Assembly: GCA_014860115.1 (NCBI GenBank)
Contig: JACZKK010000139.1
Span: 1 to 33,485, forward strand
Source of the DNA: Ignavibacteriaceae bacterium
Lineage (GTDB): Bacteria; Bacteroidota; Ignavibacteria; Ignavibacteriales; Ignavibacteriaceae
Length of the DNA stretch: 33,485 nt
Reading direction: 5' to 3'
The position numbers were made by a program, and so were the translations under genes. Positions 2,003-10,265 of this stretch are shown here, in pieces (position 1 is the stretch's first letter; each line of letters opens with the position of its first letter). A model generated the notes under the pieces. That model was given only the letters and a program-made list of their open reading frames with translations, did no database searches and had not been told where the DNA came from.

Positions 2003-2526
2003 TTCTCTCTGGATTGTTTACATTTTTTTGGATCTTTGCAGCGGGCAAAAATGTTGAAAGAGTAACTTTCAAAGTTAAATCCTAAGTTCTCACTTATTTC
2101 TTCAGGAAGCTGCTTAATTCTTGGGTCAGCAAATTCGATTATTTTACCGCAGTCAACACAAATAAGATGGTCGTGAACCTGTCGTTTAAAGCTGCTTTCA
2201 AAACGGTTTACGTTATCGCCAAAATTTCGTTTTGAGAGCAATTCACATTGTGCAAGTAGTTCGAGAGTTTTATAAACAGTAGCGCGAGATACTCTCGAAT
2301 TTAAATTTTTCATCAGGACGTAAAGATCATCAGCACCAAAGTGTCCTTCATACTCGAGAGCTGCTTCCAGCACTTCAAATCTTTCAGGTGTAATTCTATT
2401 CTTACCTGCTTTAAGAAAATTCCTGAATATTTCTTCGGCTTGTTTATTTTTCAATTCTATTAAGTTGAAATCTATTTGAAAATATGACCGCTGTATGGCT
2501 TCTGCAAAATAAAGATTTTTGATCAA
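1999..2526 (-). CDS. Fur-family metal-responsive repressor
   Basis: The winged-helix DNA-binding region is clear (RITPERFEVLEAAL at about 45-58, then RVSRATVYKTLELL). It is followed by the Fur metal and dimer domain with HDHLICVDCG (His118, His120, Cys123, Cys126) and a second cysteine pair, CKDPKKC (163, 169). This four-cysteine structural zinc site is usual for Fur, PerR and Zur. The frame opens with TTG at 2526, but family members normally begin about eight residues before the equivalent of IFRNFL. A second TTG at 2454 (residue 25, then KNKQAEEIFRN) fits better; neither has a good ribosome site. It is 12 bases downstream of feoB and overlaps the hydrolase gene, so it is part of the feo operon. 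Regulation of ferrous iron uptake, including its own operon, is the simplest reading. Whether it is Fur, PerR or Zur cannot be decided from sequence alone. Confidence 0.85.
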   Translation of the reverse strand: MIKNLYFAEAIQRSYFQIDFNLIELKNKQAEEIFRNFLKAGKNRITPERFEVLEAALEYEGHFGADDLYVLMKNLNSRVSRATVYKTLELLAQCELLSKRNFGDNVNRFESSFKRQVHDHLICVDCGKIIEFADPRIKQLPEEISENLGFNFESYSFNIFARCKDPKKCKQSREK

Positions 2527-2538
2527 GAATTAAATGTT

Positions 2539-4575
2539 TTACTGGATTCCAAAAAATCTAAGTCCATTGACTGTTATAAAAGTCATCAAATAAGCTAATG
2601 CTGTAAAAATGAAAACTTGTAGGAGAGGGATTTTCCACCCGCCCGTTTCCTTTCGGGATACAGCAACTGTAGAAAGACACTGCAGCGCAAAAATGAAAAA
2701 CACTATAAGCCCAATGGAAGTGGCAACAGTAAAAAGCTTCTCTCCAGTGCCTTCTTTCTTTGCATTCCGGAGTGAGCTAAGCAGTGTACTATGCTCCTCG
2801 TCATCTTCTGAAGTCACTTTAAATGTTAATGACAAAGAGGAAACAAATACTTCACGTGCGGCAAATGCTGATATTAGTGATACTCCAATTCTCCAGTCCA
2901 TCCCAATTGGTGACATAAATGGCTGGATTAATTTACCTAAATCAGATGCGTATGAATGTTCTAATCTTTCAGCGCGTTCAAGATTTTGAATCTGCCCGGA
3001 GGTAAAACCCTCAGTTTCAACCTGAGGATCAATATTTGGGAAAAAAGTTAAGAACCATAACACAAGCGAAAAGCCGAGTATCATTGGTCCGGCTCTGAGT
3101 ATATATTCTTTAGAACTGTTATATGTATGATTTATTACAGCACTTATTTTTGGAACCCTGTAAGATGGCAGTTCAAGTATAAACGATGAAGAACCTTCAG
3201 CGCTAAAAATTCTTTTCGAAAATTTATTAATTATCCAGGCAACTACAATTGAGCTAACGATACTAAAAAAGTAAATACCTCCCAACAAAATTCCACCCAG
3301 CCAAGGCTTATCTCTTGGAATAAGATAGGCGATCAGCAATGCATAAACAGGCAGCCTTGCACTACAGCTCATCAATGGTATTATAAAAATTGTAAACAAT
3401 CTCTCTTTCCGATTCGGAATTGTTCTGGCAGCGATAATTGCAGGAATTGCACACGCAAATCCTGAAAGCATTGGAACGAACGATCTTCCGTTTAATCCTA
3501 TTTTAGATAATGGCTTATCAATTAGCATAGCCCCGCGTGCAAGATAACCTGAGTCCTCGAGCAATCCGAGTATTACAAATAAGATTATTATTTGAGGAAC
3601 AAATACCAACACAGAACCGGCACCGGAAATTATTCCATCAGAAACTAAAAATGTAAACCAGCCGGGTTCAAAATTTTCTAAGACGAGTGAGTTTAGATTA
3701 GTAAATAGTTCATCAACCAAATCCATTAACGGTTGTGCAATCCAGAAAATGCTCGTAAAGGTTAGCCCCATAACGACAATAAAAACTAAAAATCCCCAAA
3801 ACCTGTGAAGTAATACTCGATCAATTTTTAATGTAATTTCATCCGGAGTAAACCCATTAATTGTTGCACCATCCTGAAGAATTTTTAATTCACGATTGGC
3901 AGAATTGAGATAAATTTTCTCGTCTTCCCTAACATTTTCATAAACATCATTAATAATTTCTTCAATTTCTTTAAAGGTATCTATCAGGTCTTTTCTATTC
4001 TTAAGTGAATTGTAAGGGATAATGTTTTTCTTGTCAGTTACACCAATTCGTTCCAGGTTTGAGTTGGTTGCTTGTATTAAATTTTCTATCCCTTGTTTTG
4101 ATCTTCCATTTAAGACAACAACATCGCAGTTTAAAGCTTTGCTAAGTTTTCTCTCAGATATTTTCAATCCTCGTTTTGCTAAAATATCTGTCATGGTTAA
4201 CACGATAATAACATTAAAACCAGCGCTGATTAATTGTTTAGGTAAAAGTAAATGTCTTGATAACTGGCAAGAGTCTATTGTTGTAATTACTAAATCAGGT
4301 GTACCAAGTTTTGGATGTGAGTACAATGAATCTACAGCAACTTTTTCATCAATGGATTCCGGTATAAGACTAACAATGCCGGGTGAGTCAACTAACTCTG
4401 CTTTGATATTGAATTTAGATAAAATACGGCTCGTATAATATTCTACGGTAGAGCCAGGATAGTTTACCGTCTTGTAATTTTTGCCGCTGAGGAGATTGAA
4501 TAAGGTAGTTTTGCCTGAATTGGGTGGTCCGACAAGAGTTATTAGCGGATCCTTAAGATCAGTAGAAGTAATCAT
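2539..4575 (-). CDS. feoB: Ferrous iron transporter FeoB
   Basis: This 678-residue inner-membrane protein imports Fe2+. The N-terminal G domain has G1 GPPNSGKTT (16-24), the switch NYPGSTVE (Thr43) and G3 DSPG (63-66). The G4 motif reads TMTD (127-130) instead of the usual NMxD, an unusual change at the guanine-recognition asparagine. A helical linker follows. The membrane domain starts at about residue 255, with the two gate repeats GFACAIPA (Cys375) and MSCSARLP (Cys404) intact, and a hydrophobic C-terminus. The length is at the short end for FeoB. The ATG overlaps the feoA stop by four bases (ATGA). No FeoC follows; a Fur-like gene takes that place. A palindrome upstream of feoA suggests iron-controlled transcription of the whole set. 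Confidence 0.95.
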   Translation of the reverse strand: MITSTDLKDPLITLVGPPNSGKTTLFNLLSGKNYKTVNYPGSTVEYYTSRILSKFNIKAELVDSPGIVSLIPESIDEKVAVDSLYSHPKLGTPDLVITTIDSCQLSRHLLLPKQLISAGFNVIIVLTMTDILAKRGLKISERKLSKALNCDVVVLNGRSKQGIENLIQATNSNLERIGVTDKKNIIPYNSLKNRKDLIDTFKEIEEIINDVYENVREDEKIYLNSANRELKILQDGATINGFTPDEITLKIDRVLLHRFWGFLVFIVVMGLTFTSIFWIAQPLMDLVDELFTNLNSLVLENFEPGWFTFLVSDGIISGAGSVLVFVPQIIILFVILGLLEDSGYLARGAMLIDKPLSKIGLNGRSFVPMLSGFACAIPAIIAARTIPNRKERLFTIFIIPLMSCSARLPVYALLIAYLIPRDKPWLGGILLGGIYFFSIVSSIVVAWIINKFSKRIFSAEGSSSFILELPSYRVPKISAVINHTYNSSKEYILRAGPMILGFSLVLWFLTFFPNIDPQVETEGFTSGQIQNLERAERLEHSYASDLGKLIQPFMSPIGMDWRIGVSLISAFAAREVFVSSLSLTFKVTSEDDEEHSTLLSSLRNAKKEGTGEKLFTVATSIGLIVFFIFALQCLSTVAVSRKETGGWKIPLLQVFIFTALAYLMTFITVNGLRFFGIQ

Positions 4576-5000: not shown

Positions 5001-6647
5001 ATGTCCAATATTAATAATTTGCAGTTTGTCAAGGAGCTTCTTGAGGAGCCTGAGGTAAGAAATGTTGAAAATCTGAGTCAGGTTTTTTATAAGTATGACT
5101 ATAAAAAGGAGTTGTTTCAGTTTATGACTCCAACTGTTGAAAAACTTCTCGGATACAACATTGATGAACTTAACAAAATTGGATTTCAAAACATCATCAG
5201 AAACCAACTTGTAGAAAAGAAGAGTTCTTATTCACTTAATCATACCAGGATCGGTCTTCATATTGAAGAGAATTTTATAACCTACCTTGTAGAAACACAT
5301 ACTGGCGAAAGTAAATGGATAGAAGATAACTCTTTTATCATCTGTGATGCTTTCAATCAAAAAGTCAGCAGATACGGAATTCTGAAAGACGTTGGTGCAT
5401 ACATTAGAGAAGAGAAACTAAGACAAATTATATCCGAGATACTGGAAGCTTCTAATTCAGAAAAAAACCTGAGCGATCTTTTCAAATTCATCCATACTTG
5501 CATTAAGAAGTTGATGAAAGCTGATAATTTTTATATCGCATATTACAAAAAGGATTCAGCTTTGCTTACATTTCCATACTTTGTTGATGAAGAAGATACT
5601 GATTCATCAGCAAAAAAACTTGGCAAAGGCTTAACCGAATACGTTCTTCGAACAGGAAAATCGGCTCTCGTTGATTTGGAAATGGACGAAGAGTTAAGAA
5701 GGCGGGGTGAAATAGAGCTGATAGGTCCGCAATCTCCGATATGGCTGGGTGTACCATTAAAAATTATGGATAAAACTATAGGTGTACTGGTAGTTCAAGA
5801 TTATTTAAATCCAAACACATACGGACCCTCAGAGCAAAAGATTCTGGATGTTATTTCCTACCCGATATCCAGGGCGATTGAAAGAAAGATGATGGATGAA
5901 GATCGTGAAGATATGATCCGACAGCTCAAAGATATGAATCGTTCAAAGGATAGACTATTCTCGCTAATTTCTCATGATTTGAGAGCACCATTCAATTCAC
6001 TCTTGGGATTTACAGAAATATTAACAACTGAATTTGATACTTTAACACACAGAGATATTAAAGAGTATATTAATGTAATCAATGATTCCTCCAGAACTCT
6101 ATTTGCAATGACGAACAATCTATTGCATTACTCCCGGCTTCAATTAAATAAGTTTGACTTCCTTCCGGAAAAGATTTTTCTTGATGAACTGATTCATTCT
6201 GCAATCGACTTGTTAAAATTTAAAATCAGGAAGAAAGACGTTCTTATTAAAGCCGATATTAATAAGGAATATAGAATAGTGGGCGATATTGAAATGTTGA
6301 GGATTACTTTTGAAAATTTGATATCGAATTCAATCAAGTATTCCAAAAAAGGAAGCGTTGTAAAAGTCTTTGCTGAAAAAATCACATCTGAAAATGGTGA
6401 CGTTTCAGCAATCCAAATAAGTATCACTGATGAGGGAGTTGGAATAAGTGATGATAATCAGAAGAAGATCTTAAATGGGGAAATGATTTCTACACCCGGA
6501 ACGGATAAGGAACCTGGTTCCGGTCTGGGACTTTTACTCGCTCAGAAATACATTTCGTTGAACAGAGGCAAATTTGAAATTATCAGCACGGAGGGTGAGG
6601 GGGCAACTGTTCTTATCACATTTCCAGTGATAAAGAGCGATTATTAA
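5001..6647 (+). CDS. Soluble PAS-GAF sensor histidine kinase
   Basis: The protein has 548 residues and no membrane segment, so it is a cytoplasmic sensor. Order of domains: a PAS-like domain (about 25-135, with FMTPTVEKLLGY and a PAC-like end SRYGILKDVGAY); a GAF domain (about 140-296, with GLTEYVLRTGKSALV and WLGVPLKIMDKTIGVLVVQ); a HisKA dimerisation helix with SLISHDLRAPFNSLLGF, where His325 is the phosphorylation site; then the ATPase domain with N box ENLISNSIKYS (438-447), G1 DEGVG (477-481) and G2 GSGLGL (506-511). All catalytic boxes are present. No response regulator is adjacent, so its partner is elsewhere. It is divergent from the feo operon and shares its control region, but a link to iron is only positional. 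It has no clear ribosome site before the ATG. Confidence 0.9.
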   Translation: MSNINNLQFVKELLEEPEVRNVENLSQVFYKYDYKKELFQFMTPTVEKLLGYNIDELNKIGFQNIIRNQLVEKKSSYSLNHTRIGLHIEENFITYLVETHTGESKWIEDNSFIICDAFNQKVSRYGILKDVGAYIREEKLRQIISEILEASNSEKNLSDLFKFIHTCIKKLMKADNFYIAYYKKDSALLTFPYFVDEEDTDSSAKKLGKGLTEYVLRTGKSALVDLEMDEELRRRGEIELIGPQSPIWLGVPLKIMDKTIGVLVVQDYLNPNTYGPSEQKILDVISYPISRAIERKMMDEDREDMIRQLKDMNRSKDRLFSLISHDLRAPFNSLLGFTEILTTEFDTLTHRDIKEYINVINDSSRTLFAMTNNLLHYSRLQLNKFDFLPEKIFLDELIHSAIDLLKFKIRKKDVLIKADINKEYRIVGDIEMLRITFENLISNSIKYSKKGSVVKVFAEKITSENGDVSAIQISITDEGVGISDDNQKKILNGEMISTPGTDKEPGSGLGLLLAQKYISLNRGKFEIISTEGEGATVLITFPVIKSDY

Positions 6648-7002: not shown

Positions 7003-7536
7003 ATGGAAATTGCAAAGATTGCATTTTTGGAGACTTATGCACTCGAAGAAAATGGTGGTGTAATGGGAGCCATTCTGGTTACCGATTCAGAAACTAAACC
7101 ACTGGAGTTTAGAGTAACTGCACCAATTAAACCTACCGGCTTCCAAAAAACACTTTACGGTGATGTTCTTCTTGAGCATATTCTTGTTGAATTAATTTCG
7201 GTTCCACTTTTGAATGCAATAAACGAACAGGTTGATTTGATACTGGTTAAGGATCCATTCTTTCTCGGTGCAAATAACAAGCAGGGCGTTAGGGTTGTGA
7301 GAGTTTTCAACGAAGGAGATGGTAAATCAAGAATAAGCACAAAGGTAGAACCTCTTTCATTTCCAGGCAACGGTGCAGGAAAAGTTATGATAGAAACTTC
7401 AAAAAAATTCGAAGCCGAAATAGTTCCAATCAAAGATCAGCTAAATAAACTTGCTGAAAGCCGAAATCTACTTGAGCCTTTTGAAAGACTTCGGATTGCC
7501 TGCGAACAGGTACATCAGCAAAAATCCATCGAATAA
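7003..7536 (+). CDS. Conserved protein of unknown function, partner of the degenerate SNF2 protein
   Basis: This 177-residue protein has no signal peptide or membrane segment and an alpha/beta look. The striking part is residues 36-65: FRVTAPIKPTGFQKTLYGD, then an amphipathic helix (VLLEHILVELI). It is preceded by GGVMGAILVTD and followed near the end by LLEPFERLRIAC (156-167). From memory this FRVTxPxxPTxxQxxLYG pattern recurs in an unnamed family in several phyla; that was not checked. TTAGGAG lies seven bases before the ATG, one of the better ribosome sites in the window. The next gene starts five bases after its stop, so the two are almost certainly one operon and probably work together. 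No catalytic residues can be pointed to. A scaffold or adaptor for the large protein is a guess. Confidence 0.75.
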   Translation: MEIAKIAFLETYALEENGGVMGAILVTDSETKPLEFRVTAPIKPTGFQKTLYGDVLLEHILVELISVPLLNAINEQVDLILVKDPFFLGANNKQGVRVVRVFNEGDGKSRISTKVEPLSFPGNGAGKVMIETSKKFEAEIVPIKDQLNKLAESRNLLEPFERLRIACEQVHQQKSIE

Positions 7537-7541
7537 TCTAA

Positions 7542-10265
7542 ATGCTTAGAAAGGTTCGGAAAAAACTAGCCTCTTCAATTTCTAAAGTTGAAGGGGTTGA
7601 AGATTTTAATTTTGGCAATTGGTTAAAAATTCCCTTATCTGAAGAATTTCAAATAGGTGCTATTAATTCCAGGTTAAAAGACTTGCCCGGTTTATCTATT
7701 GATATACCAACCACTCAAAGTTCCGCTCATTCGTTTGATATCCATGAACCGGAAGTTGGTGATGAAATTAAAGCTTATCACTTCAAAAAAGTACGCAGTA
7801 ACGCTGTCTTTTTTATGATGCACGAAGTTACTAACCAGGGAATAAATTTACCTGAAATCGAACCTAAGCCTCTCGGTTATTCTGCAATGAATGTTGACTT
7901 TCTGATTAAATCTCCATCCATAAAAGATATAAGAGTGAAGTTCAGTTCCTGGGCTGCGCCTGAATATAAATTTGTCATTGAAGTGCCAGCTATTTTTGAT
8001 TACCTGAGTGAAATGGTTCCAACGGTTTATAATATTGAATTGTTGAAAGTTGAGGAATTTGTAAATCAAGTTGAAAATATCGATGTATTGAATGTTGAAC
8101 TTGAGACATTCAGGAAAAGTAAAATTAAAAAGATCCCTATCCCTGAAGTTCAGAAATCGAAAAAGATTTATAAAGTAAAAATTCCTTCCATTGGCAGTTA
8201 TAAAGCTACTCAAAAAGAAATTTCATTCTCAGTTTTTCAGCAGCCAACAATTTCCGAATCACATAACGTATCGATTCCTAATGTAAAAAACTGGTTTACA
8301 AAAGTGCAACTGCCGGTTGTTGATTCATTTTTGTATTTTAATTTAACGCAGGATAAACTGCCGCCAATGGATAAAAAGGTAAAGGGTCTTAAAAATCCAG
8401 AGTCAGTTAAGGAAATATTAAAGTTTGTATTGAGCAGTGTAAAGAAGGTTGATTGGAAAGAACGAAAGGACCTCCACATTCAGCTCAGATCTTACGAAGA
8501 AACCGGATCAAAATTTTTAGTAGAGCATGACTATGCATTGCTGCAGGATGAGTTTGGAATAGATAAAGAAAAAGAAGTTATAGCTGCATTAAAGTTTTTG
8601 TTTGGAAACAGGATCATTCGCTCAGCGCTTATTGTAACAACTTCGGCTAAGAAAGGAAATCTTGATCTTAGCTTAAGATGCAATATTGAAATTGGCTGGA
8701 GCGATAAATTAAATAAATACTGTCCCGAACTTCCGCTGACAGTTGTTGAAGGGGATAACGAAAAAAGAACCAATCTCTGGAATAAATCCGGAGTGCTTCA
8801 TCTCAGCGACCAGGCAACTGTGTTAAACGACTTCCGATTAAAAATATTAGAAGAAAAAATATTACACAGATTTGATTGTATTATTCTTGATGATGTTCAT
8901 CTGATACTTTATGCCGGCGATAAAGGCAAAGAATTTTTATCAGTGTTAAAACCACGTAACCTTTGGGCAACATCTGGAATCCTTGATAAAAATCTTTTGC
9001 AAAATATTAACGCTCTCCTGAATCACTCAATCAAAATAGAGTCAGTAAAAATCAGAGATAAAGAATCAATAGTAAAAGAAGCTCCAAAGTTTATATGGCA
9101 TGAGGAATGGATAAAAGCAGATGAGGACCAGCTTAAAGAGTTTAAAGTCAGTATGGTTGAATGTCAGAAAGATTTAAGAAGGGTGCTGGAGTCTGGTAAT
9201 CCCTTAAGATTTACTGCAAACATTTTTACTCTTCTTCATCGCTTAAAGCAGGTTGGTAATTTTGCTCCGGGTAATACAAAAAGTCCTAAAACAGAATTGC
9301 TTCTTGAACAAGTAAAAACCATCAGAGATAACGGTAAGAAAGTTCTGATTCTGTCACAATATGACAGACTTGGTACAAAAAAGATTGAAAAGCTGCTTGA
9401 ACAGGAAGGAATAAACTTCATGCAGATTCCAGCAGGAATGGCAATTGATGAAGTTAAAAAATCAATATCACTCTTTAAATCGAAAAAAGAAATTGTTGCA
9501 TTAGTTACAGATGCTAAGATGTCAAAACTTGATTTTGGAAATTTTGCAGTTCCGTACATAATTCGTTTCGATCAATGGTGGAATCCTATTGCTACCTGGG
9601 AATTGGCAGATATGTTTTCACCTGAAGCGGATGAATCAGCTAATACCGGAAGCGTAAATGTTTATAACTACTATTTGATGGGATCTATTGATGAAGGTAT
9701 TAGAGAATTATTATACAAAAAGGATGTTTTGAGAAAAAATCTTTTTGAACTTATGCCTTTAAAAGTTTTTGATGAACTTATGACCATAGACGAGTGGCTT
9801 CGATTATTTCAGATGCCTTCAGGAGATGATTTTATTAAGATAACACCTGAAGACGTAATAAAACTTTTGAACACCTCTACGCTTAACTTTTTCAGAACAA
9901 CCCTTTCTAAATTTTTCTTTTTGCTTGGATACTCAAACGTGGATATAATTGATCTGCCTAATTCAAGTTCATTTAATGTTGTTGGTGAAGCAGTCCGCAA
10001 CAACCGGAAATATTACCTTAATGCCAGGGTATATATTGAAGGTAAGGTGACAAAGAAGATGATTGAGGAAATTGTATTTGAAACTTCATCTTCCAGTAAG
10101 GATAAGATTTTTATTATTTCAAAAGGAGAATTCCCCGAAGACAGCGAAAAACTTCTTCGCGATAATGTCACCTTGCTGGATGGCCATACTTTAGCAAAGT
10201 ATCTGCTTCTTCTCGAAATTATTAATTCCCAGACTACTGATCACGCTCAGAAATTATTTTCATAA
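7542..10265 (+). CDS. Degenerate SNF2-type helicase with Mrr-like C-terminal domain (putative pseudo-ATPase)
   Basis: The 907-residue frame is intact. Residues 1-290 match no domain known to me and carry repeated short IP/LP/VP strands. From 311 the SNF2 layout is followed step by step: LRSYEETGSKFLVEHDYALL, then DEFGIDKEKE (336-345) where SNF2 has DEMGLGKT; LIVTT (363-367) and WSDKLNKYCPELPL; DDVH (450-453) for DEAH; WATSG (475-479) for the ALTGTP motif; LLHRLKQVGNF and KKVLILSQYD (599-608) at the start of the second lobe; then FDQWWNP (676-682) followed by WELADMFSPEADES where QAxDRxHRIGQ is expected. The Walker A GKT and the motif VI arginines are missing, so ATP hydrolysis is unlikely. 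Residues 780-895 resemble an Mrr-type nuclease fold (FFFLLGYSNVDII, IFIISKGEFPEDSEKLL, LLDGHTLAKYLLLLE) without the D...QxK residues. It pairs with the 177-aa gene. A regulatory, DNA-binding or decoy role is inferred. Confidence 0.75.
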   Translation: MLRKVRKKLASSISKVEGVEDFNFGNWLKIPLSEEFQIGAINSRLKDLPGLSIDIPTTQSSAHSFDIHEPEVGDEIKAYHFKKVRSNAVFFMMHEVTNQGINLPEIEPKPLGYSAMNVDFLIKSPSIKDIRVKFSSWAAPEYKFVIEVPAIFDYLSEMVPTVYNIELLKVEEFVNQVENIDVLNVELETFRKSKIKKIPIPEVQKSKKIYKVKIPSIGSYKATQKEISFSVFQQPTISESHNVSIPNVKNWFTKVQLPVVDSFLYFNLTQDKLPPMDKKVKGLKNPESVKEILKFVLSSVKKVDWKERKDLHIQLRSYEETGSKFLVEHDYALLQDEFGIDKEKEVIAALKFLFGNRIIRSALIVTTSAKKGNLDLSLRCNIEIGWSDKLNKYCPELPLTVVEGDNEKRTNLWNKSGVLHLSDQATVLNDFRLKILEEKILHRFDCIILDDVHLILYAGDKGKEFLSVLKPRNLWATSGILDKNLLQNINALLNHSIKIESVKIRDKESIVKEAPKFIWHEEWIKADEDQLKEFKVSMVECQKDLRRVLESGNPLRFTANIFTLLHRLKQVGNFAPGNTKSPKTELLLEQVKTIRDNGKKVLILSQYDRLGTKKIEKLLEQEGINFMQIPAGMAIDEVKKSISLFKSKKEIVALVTDAKMSKLDFGNFAVPYIIRFDQWWNPIATWELADMFSPEADESANTGSVNVYNYYLMGSIDEGIRELLYKKDVLRKNLFELMPLKVFDELMTIDEWLRLFQMPSGDDFIKITPEDVIKLLNTSTLNFFRTTLSKFFFLLGYSNVDIIDLPNSSSFNVVGEAVRNNRKYYLNARVYIEGKVTKKMIEEIVFETSSSSKDKIFIISKGEFPEDSEKLLRDNVTLLDGHTLAKYLLLLEIINSQTTDHAQKLFS

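What the first reader, a model, noticed from the sequence alone, without database searches (positions are those of the whole stretch)
7542..10265. Intact SNF2-like protein in which nearly every ATPase motif is altered, with a dead Mrr-like tail
Seen directly: residues 311-720 track the SNF2 helicase layout motif by motif, but DEMGLGKT is replaced by DEFGIDKEKE, DEAH by DDVH, the ALTGTP motif by WATSGI, and QAxDRxHRIGQ by WELADMFSPEADES. The structural signatures KVLILSQYD and FDQWWNP survive. The tail (780-895) has an Mrr-like outline without nuclease residues. The frame of 907 codons has no interruption. Established: GKT and the motif VI arginines are needed for ATP hydrolysis in this superfamily. 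Inference: this is a maintained pseudo-helicase, possibly a DNA-bound scaffold, regulator or sensor of foreign DNA, coupled to the 177-aa partner. It is the strongest candidate here for an undescribed system.
Basis: partly seen in the sequence, partly recalled or inferred. Interest (0 to 1): 0.75.

Follow-up and report, generated by a model that had tools for sequence, protein, structure and literature searches.

The report
Motorless SNF2 protein with conserved partner
A bacterial protein built like a DNA-pumping motor joined to a DNA cutter has lost the key parts of both machines, yet evolution keeps it intact beside the same small partner protein, and working-looking versions of the pair survive in other bacterial phyla, so it looks like an old, probably defensive machine reused for a motor-free job.

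Summary
In detail: 7542-10265 is an uninterrupted 907-aa frame; residues 304-757 of its model have the SNF2 fold (Z 22.2 to 1z63), motifs I, II, III and VI are altered and the Mrr-like tail lacks its active site. It is not a decaying copy. It belongs to a two-gene module: a 177-aa protein (p2; RNase H-like fold, nearest EndoV, no known family) lies directly upstream of the SNF2-like gene in 42 of 42 loci (one locus is a fused remnant). Five members from Acidobacteria and Cyanobacteria keep intact-looking SNF2 motifs and carry different C-terminal parts (Mrr, DnaJ, phosphorylase), or an Mrr gene next door. In Ignavibacteria motif VI is lost in 39 of 39 aligned rows; in one deep clade, found beside feoB, the P-loop is lost too, although three pairs inside that clade give core omega of 0.04-0.07. 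Best explanation: a domesticated, ATPase-dead and nuclease-dead descendant of a p2-SNF2-effector DNA-targeting module, now a scaffold. Scaffold role and DNA binding are inferred, not shown. New variant of a known kind.

The parts
7003..7536 (+). p2, 177-aa partner; RNase H-like fold nearest EndoV; no Pfam, NCBIfam or PADLOC family
7542..10265 (+). 907-aa degenerate SNF2-like protein with degenerate Mrr-like tail
7542..8441 (+). residues 1-300: fast-evolving region without a confident fold, rich in short hydrophobic-Pro motifs
8451..9812 (+). residues 304-757: two-lobed SNF2-fold core
8547..8576 (+). altered motif I (DEFGIDKEKE, residues 336-345); lysine K342 kept
8889..8900 (+). altered motif II (DDVH, residues 450-453)
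8964..8981 (+). altered motif III (WATSGI, residues 475-480)
9597..9638 (+). place of motif VI without DRxHRxG (residues 686-699)
9783..9809 (+). TIDEWLRLF after the core (residues 748-756); its W is kept in 42 of 43 module rows
9885..10202 (+). Mrr-like tail (residues 782-887) without D and QxK
2539..4575 (-). feoB, upstream marker of the clade's fixed chromosomal place; homologue in 19 of 45 listed loci

Best explanation
The 907-aa protein and p2 are the domesticated, catalytically dead form of a two-gene p2-SNF2-effector module. In the form seen today in Acidobacteria and Cyanobacteria, p2 pairs with an SNF2 motor with intact motifs that carries, or lies beside, another domain such as an Mrr nuclease; by comparison with ZorD and pPIWI-RE this was probably a DNA-targeting, counter-invader system (inferred). 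In Ignavibacteria motif VI is gone in every aligned row, and in the window clade and some other rows the P-loop too; the Mrr tail kept its fold signature but not its active site. The window clade keeps the pair at one chromosomal place beside feoB. There the protein most likely works as an ATP-independent, SNF2-shaped scaffold or clamp held to p2, perhaps through its N-terminal motif array. Shown: linkage, folds of p2 and of the core (models), motif states, intact-looking relatives, purifying selection in related pairs, fixed place. Inferred: loss of ATP hydrolysis and cutting, DNA or protein binding, docking on p2, and the order and direction of change (the tree is not rooted by the data).
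For: 42 of 42 loci linked; 19 of 59 genomes with both genes; SNF2 fold; DRxHRxG in 5 of 5 non-Ignavibacteria rows and 0 of 39 Ignavibacteria rows; P-loop T/S with K in 11 of 17 rows outside and 0 of 21 inside the window clade; omega values; feoB synteny in 19 of 45 listed loci and none of the 18 readable ones with GK[TS]; intact Mrr in L147 and Mrr in trans at L109; L093 keeps a frame of 755 codons without the ATP-binding lobe.
Against: No activity or binding was tested. The module is absent from 40 of 59 relatives, so it is not a universal housekeeping function. K342 is kept in 16 of 21 window-clade rows, which leaves nucleotide binding possible. The window's own dN/dS is saturated. The clade has moderate tree support (91/80) and long outgroup branches. 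The Mrr_cat model is met at E up to 0.01 in only 8 of 37 rows, and three rows lack the tail altogether.
Confidence: 0.6

Rival explanations
1. The pair is still a working defence system; the SNF2-like subunit is a pseudo-subunit that senses or presents DNA, and catalysis comes from a protein encoded elsewhere.
For: Relatives resemble ZorD and DpdE; inactive SNF2 lobes and inactive REases are proposed as sensors in DndH, PglZ and BrxHII (passages); the protein evolves much faster than p2.
Against: Fixed place beside feoB and no copy found in the phage, viral or plasmid collections; six neighbours scanned in the window have no defence family.
Confidence: 0.17
2. The protein still uses ATP in an unusual way, through K342 and D450.
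For: K342 kept in 16 of 21 window-clade rows and D450 in 21 of 21.
Against: Second P-loop G is D or E in 19 of 21, T/S is absent in 21 of 21, motif VI absent in 39 of 39; L093 lives without the lobe; that GKT and the motif VI arginines are needed is established knowledge.
Confidence: 0.09
3. The gene is a slowly decaying relic.
For: Motifs and tail are lost stepwise; L110 is a deletion remnant, L093 lost a lobe, three rows lost the tail.
Against: Long intact frames in the 43 aligned rows, core omega 0.044-0.068 in three window-clade pairs, p2 95-54% identical across 18 rows.
Confidence: 0.06
4. It is a RapA-like, RNA polymerase-associated SNF2 protein.
For: RapA and BrxHII share the order SNF2 core, then degenerate REase (passage in PMC12839542).
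Against: No Tudor or RapA C-terminal domain listed for the window protein in the Pfam scan at E up to 1; relatives' C-termini match Mrr, DnaJ or PNP.
Confidence: 0.03

Closest known systems
ZorD of Zorya type I (PADLOC: SWI2/SNF2 helicase, Mrr-like nuclease)
   Same: Best PADLOC match of the intact SNF2 relatives (E about 1e-70 to 1e-74); L147 has the same order, SNF2 then Mrr.
   Different: Window protein has no ZorD match at E up to 0.1; partner is p2; none of the six window neighbours scanned is MotA/MotB-like; motifs dead.
pPIWI-RE three-gene systems (PIWI module, DinG helicase, REase; PMC3702460, passages)
   Same: Works-like comparison: an RNase H-fold partner with an SF2 helicase and a REase.
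   Different: Helicase is SNF2, not DinG; p2 is one 177-aa domain; two genes; pseudo-enzymes in Ignavibacteria.
Inactive SNF2 lobes of DndH and PglZ; SNF2 plus inactive REase of BrxHII and RapA (PMC10853773, PMC12839542, passages)
   Same: Degenerate SNF2 and REase folds kept as proposed binding or sensing parts.
   Different: There one lobe is inactive or the motor is kept; here both lobes are present with motifs I, II, III and VI altered, and the partner differs.
Endonuclease V and DUF99 (for p2)
   Same: Fold: human EndoV 6oze Z 12.8; A. fulgidus 2qh9 Z 12.7. That 2qh9 is a DUF99 protein is recalled.
   Different: No sequence-profile similarity to EndoV; no acidic residue conserved on the first strand across the p2 superfamily.

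Membership tests
SNF2 family (fold) | two-lobed SWI2/SNF2 core | tested here: met
   (1z63 Z 22.2, 406 aligned)
SNF2 ATPase (active) | motif I GxGK[TS] | tested here: not met
   GIDKE in the window; K342 kept
SNF2 ATPase (active) | motif VI DRxHRxG | tested here: not met
   absent in the window and in 39 of 39 Ignavibacteria rows
Mrr nuclease | Mrr_cat profile over cut-off | tested here: met
   25.6 bits against 21
Mrr nuclease | catalytic D and QxK | tested here: not met
   0 of 36 Ignavibacteria rows with a tail have the full set in either register
Zorya type I | ZorD match and ZorA/ZorB neighbours | tested here: not met
   no ZorD match of the window protein at E up to 0.1; no MotA/MotB among six neighbours scanned; the rest of the genome was not searched for ZorA/ZorB
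pPIWI-RE system | DinG-type helicase in a three-gene operon with a REase gene | tested here: not met
   SNF2-type helicase; two-gene unit
Endonuclease V (p2) | EndoV-like RNase H fold | tested here: met
Endonuclease V (p2) | EndoV sequence profile (PF04493) | tested here: not met
   no Pfam match of p2 at E up to 1 other than Arch_flagellin at 0.13; profile alignment probability under 1%
Endonuclease V (p2) | catalytic acidic residues | tested here: inconclusive
   none conserved on the first strand in the superfamily alignment; no residue-level superposition was available
RapA | Tudor and RapA C-terminal domains | tested here: not met
   not listed by Pfam at E up to 1

The most novel reading that the evidence does not exclude
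p2 is a single-domain PIWI/EndoV-fold specificity subunit that captures the N-terminal motif array of interchangeable effectors (SNF2-Mrr, SNF2-phosphorylase, SNF2-DnaJ, perhaps even a helix-turn-helix protein in L073), and so defines a previously unnamed prokaryotic conflict system. In Ignavibacteria this system was converted step by step, under selection, into a motor-free and nuclease-free chromosomal regulator.
Probability: 0.2. Interest if true: 0.85.

Novelty: new variant of a known kind. Interest (0 to 1): 0.62.

Why it matters
One gene pair gives a graded series: intact motor with nuclease, SNF2 fold without motif VI, without the P-loop, and one copy without the ATP-binding lobe, with the same partner throughout. 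That makes it possible to ask directly what an SNF2 fold does without ATP. The partner p2 is a strongly conserved RNase H-fold protein without a family name in the libraries searched, and it has no match in PADLOC-DB 2.0.0, so the intact versions of the pair are candidates for an undescribed defence system.

Tried and rejected
p2 against known families: Pfam (only Arch_flagellin at E 0.13, far under its cut-off), NCBIfam, PADLOC and a profile search of PDB sequences (one designed protein at E 0.27) gave nothing useful. p2 against EndoV by profile alignment: nothing. The first attempt used an EndoV set that held wrong-frame rows; the second used 7 of the 12 EndoV rows, and the other five (L172, L173, L178, L179, L180) were dropped as wrong frames.

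Phage, viral and plasmid copies: none found (phages; viral contigs, 105 pattern matches, none confirmed; plasmids with the L109 and L108 p2 as queries). Mutual exclusion with canonical SNF2 genes was considered and dropped: one module genome, G026, also has a canonical 1089-aa copy.

The tryptophan motif after the core was first taken as a strict signature; the strict pattern is met by 21 of 44 module rows (5 of 5 non-Ignavibacteria), so only the single W (42 of 43 rows) is claimed.

Rows left out of the 43-row alignment: L069, L087, L088 (contig ends), L073 (SNF2 part replaced), L110 (deletion remnant). L224 was found later and is counted separately. The p2 scans by DNA pattern can miss diverged members; the genome samples are samples.

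Literature: searches listed no paper on this gene pair as far as titles and abstract starts show; they cover open PMC papers only.

Full report
WHAT IS THERE. The window holds an uninterrupted ATG frame at 7542-10265 (907 aa), preceded by five bases and a 177-aa gene on the same strand, p2, at 7003-7536. The genome has 3.93 Mb in 222 contigs, completeness 99%. Pfam gives Helicase_C (residues 586-683, E 6.3e-5) and Mrr_cat (782-887, E 1.4e-5) in the large protein and nothing significant in p2. NCBIfam gives only a partial match to a SCO1167-type helicase far under its cut-off. The AlphaFold2 model (37 rows, pLDDT 70.8) is confident over about 310-760, fair over the tail, and mostly under 50 over 1-300. 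Its core matches the Sulfolobus SWI2/SNF2 ATPase: Foldseek E 1.8e-20; VIA-align Z 22.2, 406 residues, rmsd 3.7.

THE MOTIFS. Motif I reads GIDKE instead of GxGK[TS], motif II DDVH, motif III WATSGI, and DRxHRxG is absent. Two details soften the description: the P-loop lysine (K342) and the first aspartate of the DE pair (D450) are in register. In the Mrr tail the catalytic D is N, and the QxK place reads RVY, or NAR if shifted by two.

THE PARTNER. The p2 model (42 rows, pLDDT 87, pTM 0.85) has an RNase H-like fold. The best Foldseek match is E. coli EndoV (E 1.6e-5); VIA-align gives human EndoV Z 12.8 (164 aligned, rmsd 3.2), A. fulgidus 2qh9 Z 12.7, UvrC C-terminal half 9.9 and Argonaute PIWI up to 9.7. 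Sequence profiles do not detect the relation. The residues conserved across the p2 superfamily include no acidic residue on the first strand, so I infer that p2 is probably not a nuclease; no residue-level superposition was available.

THE MODULE. Among 59 genomes (own included), 29 match the large protein at E up to 0.001: 19 are family members (best E at most 3e-41) and 10 have only weak matches of other SNF2-type proteins. p2 is in 19 of 59, the same 19. A p2-profile scan of GTDB genome contigs gave 42 loci; all 42 have a family match directly downstream on the same strand. In L110 (Nostoc mirabile) the two are remnants in one short frame. In L108 the gap is 215 bases; in the other 40 the genes overlap by up to 37 bases or lie at most 28 apart. 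In a sample of 395 genomes of the phylum 11 have p2, all within the window's order. Identity to the window's protein is 54-95% for p2 and 21-66% for the SNF2-like protein over 18 other rows, two of them partial for the latter.

INTACT RELATIVES. Two cyanobacterial loci (L107, L108) and three acidobacterial loci (L109, L147, L224) carry SNF2 proteins with GTGKT, DEAQ, ALTGTP and HRxG motifs. They score 364-476 bits with the Ignavibacteria profile, against at most 145 for canonical SNF2 rows of the relatives (24 of 27 rows with a match; several rows are the same gene fetched twice). Their C-termini differ: an Mrr with GGIDI and QCK in L147 (E 2.6e-21), a phosphorylase-superfamily domain in L108 (E 3.2e-17), a DnaJ domain in L224 (E 1e-10), no assigned domain in L107, and no tail in L109, where a separate Mrr gene with Mrr_N and Mrr_cat lies divergently next door (E 1.2e-25). 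A constant core with changing C-terminal parts is typical of conflict systems (general knowledge; applying it here is inference). Against it: apart from that Mrr gene, the neighbours scanned at L107, L108, L109 and L147 were not defence genes by Pfam (10 proteins). PADLOC puts the SNF2 parts nearest ZorD and DpdE and has no match for p2. Samples show rarity: the p2 profile matches 26 of 297 Acidobacteria (only two strongly), 2 of 162 in the class of G434, 1 of 291 in the order of the Nostoc genome and 7 of 377 in its phylum (one strongly).

GRADED LOSS. In the 43-row alignment DRxHRxG is in 4 of 4 non-Ignavibacteria rows and 0 of 39 Ignavibacteria rows; L224 has it too. The P-loop T/S is kept together with the lysine in 11 of 17 Ignavibacteria rows outside the window clade (one more has a gap) and in 0 of 21 inside it, where the second glycine is D or E in 19 of 21. 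On the p2 tree the window clade has 24 rows with moderate support (91/80); the 43 Ignavibacteria rows group together (100/98), with long branches outside. L093 lacks the stretch that holds motif I in its relatives L086 and L095, yet keeps a 755-aa frame with N-terminal region, second lobe and tail. None of the 36 Ignavibacteria rows with a tail keeps D, Q/E and K together in either register. Mrr_cat is met by 8 of 37 rows at E up to 0.01, SNF2-rel_dom by 17 and Helicase_C by 34.

FIXED PLACE AND SELECTION. A feoB homologue lies upstream in 19 of 45 loci listed (L110 not listed), besides the window. The window-clade rows without it (L072, L073, L074, L081) begin at a contig end within 500 bases of p2. 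None of the 18 feoB loci with a readable motif I has GK[TS]. Sixteen Ignavibacteria loci outside the clade with at least 3.6 kb upstream have no feoB there. Window-clade pairs give core omega 0.045 (L083/L085, dS 1.01), 0.044 (L079/L080, dS 2.84) and 0.068 (L081/L082, dS 2.47); tail omega 0.037 and 0.072 in the two measurable; N-terminal omega 0.106-0.145. A pair outside the clade, L091/L092, gives 0.112, 0.168 and 0.206 for core, tail and N-terminal part (Nei-Gojobori counts, no formal test). The window and its nearest relative are saturated (dS 2.67 over 346 codons). The dead-looking protein is therefore maintained in its clade.

HOW IT MOST LIKELY WORKS. In the intact forms p2 and the motor presumably act together on DNA and the C-terminal part does the damage (inferred). 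In the window clade, with neither hydrolysis nor cutting expected, what remains is two folded lobes, a REase-like tail and p2: a scaffold or clamp (inferred). The N-terminal part is enriched in hydrophobic-x-hydrophobic-Pro motifs (174 against 99 expected in 39 rows, z 8.5, inflated by relatedness; the core is not enriched). In L073 p2 and the same N-terminal region (44% identity over 245 columns) occur with another C-terminal part: a winged-helix match under Pfam's cut-off (E 2.3e-4), then a stretch that I read as nucleotidyltransferase-like from memory. I therefore guess that p2 grips this region.

WHAT IS KNOWN. pPIWI-RE systems combine a PIWI module, a DinG helicase and a REase (PMC3702460, passages). 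Inactive SNF2 lobes are described in DndH (PMC10853773, passages) and PglZ, and inactive REases after SNF2 cores in BrxHII and RapA (PMC12839542, passages). ZorD is said to carry an Mrr-like nuclease domain (PMC11890865, passages). EndoV, UvrC and DUF99 belong to the RNase H-like superfamily (PMC3985635, passages). A paper on an Snf2-nuclease fusion against phages in Halomonas is known to me only from a reference list and was not held. My searches listed nothing on this gene pair.

VERDICT. A new variant of a known kind: an SNF2-REase module with an unnamed RNase H-fold partner, whose Ignavibacteria branch became motor-free and nuclease-free while under selection. Interest 0.62.

Noticed in passing
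L073:986-2254 and 2256-3395: In a contig labelled Gammaproteobacteria (p2 82% identical to the window's), the family's N-terminal region continues into a winged-helix and possibly nucleotidyltransferase-like part instead of SNF2, followed by a DHH (RecJ-like) gene; an assembly joint or misbinned contig is possible.
   Followed up: partly
L148, L156, L160, L161, L163, L165, L225-L227, L230: Distant p2 relatives (24 weak matches of 297 Acidobacteria; six in the Cyanobacteria phylum sample) are followed by a 259-309-aa ORF, with sigma factor, FHA-GGDEF or Ser/Thr kinase genes close by in some; the ORFs are alike in sequence only within two groups.
   Followed up: partly
L110:10097-10645: Nostoc mirabile carries a broken copy in which part of p2 runs into the middle of the SNF2 gene.
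   Followed up: no
L093:10498-12765: Family member without the ATP-binding lobe but with an intact 755-aa frame.
   Followed up: partly
window 5001-6647: A GAF-containing histidine kinase lies between feoB and p2; a homologue at the same place is in 8 of the 19 feoB loci.
   Followed up: no
whole genome G000: The window genome has no PF00176 (SNF2-related domain) match at all, and no EndoV (PF04493) match.
   Followed up: no
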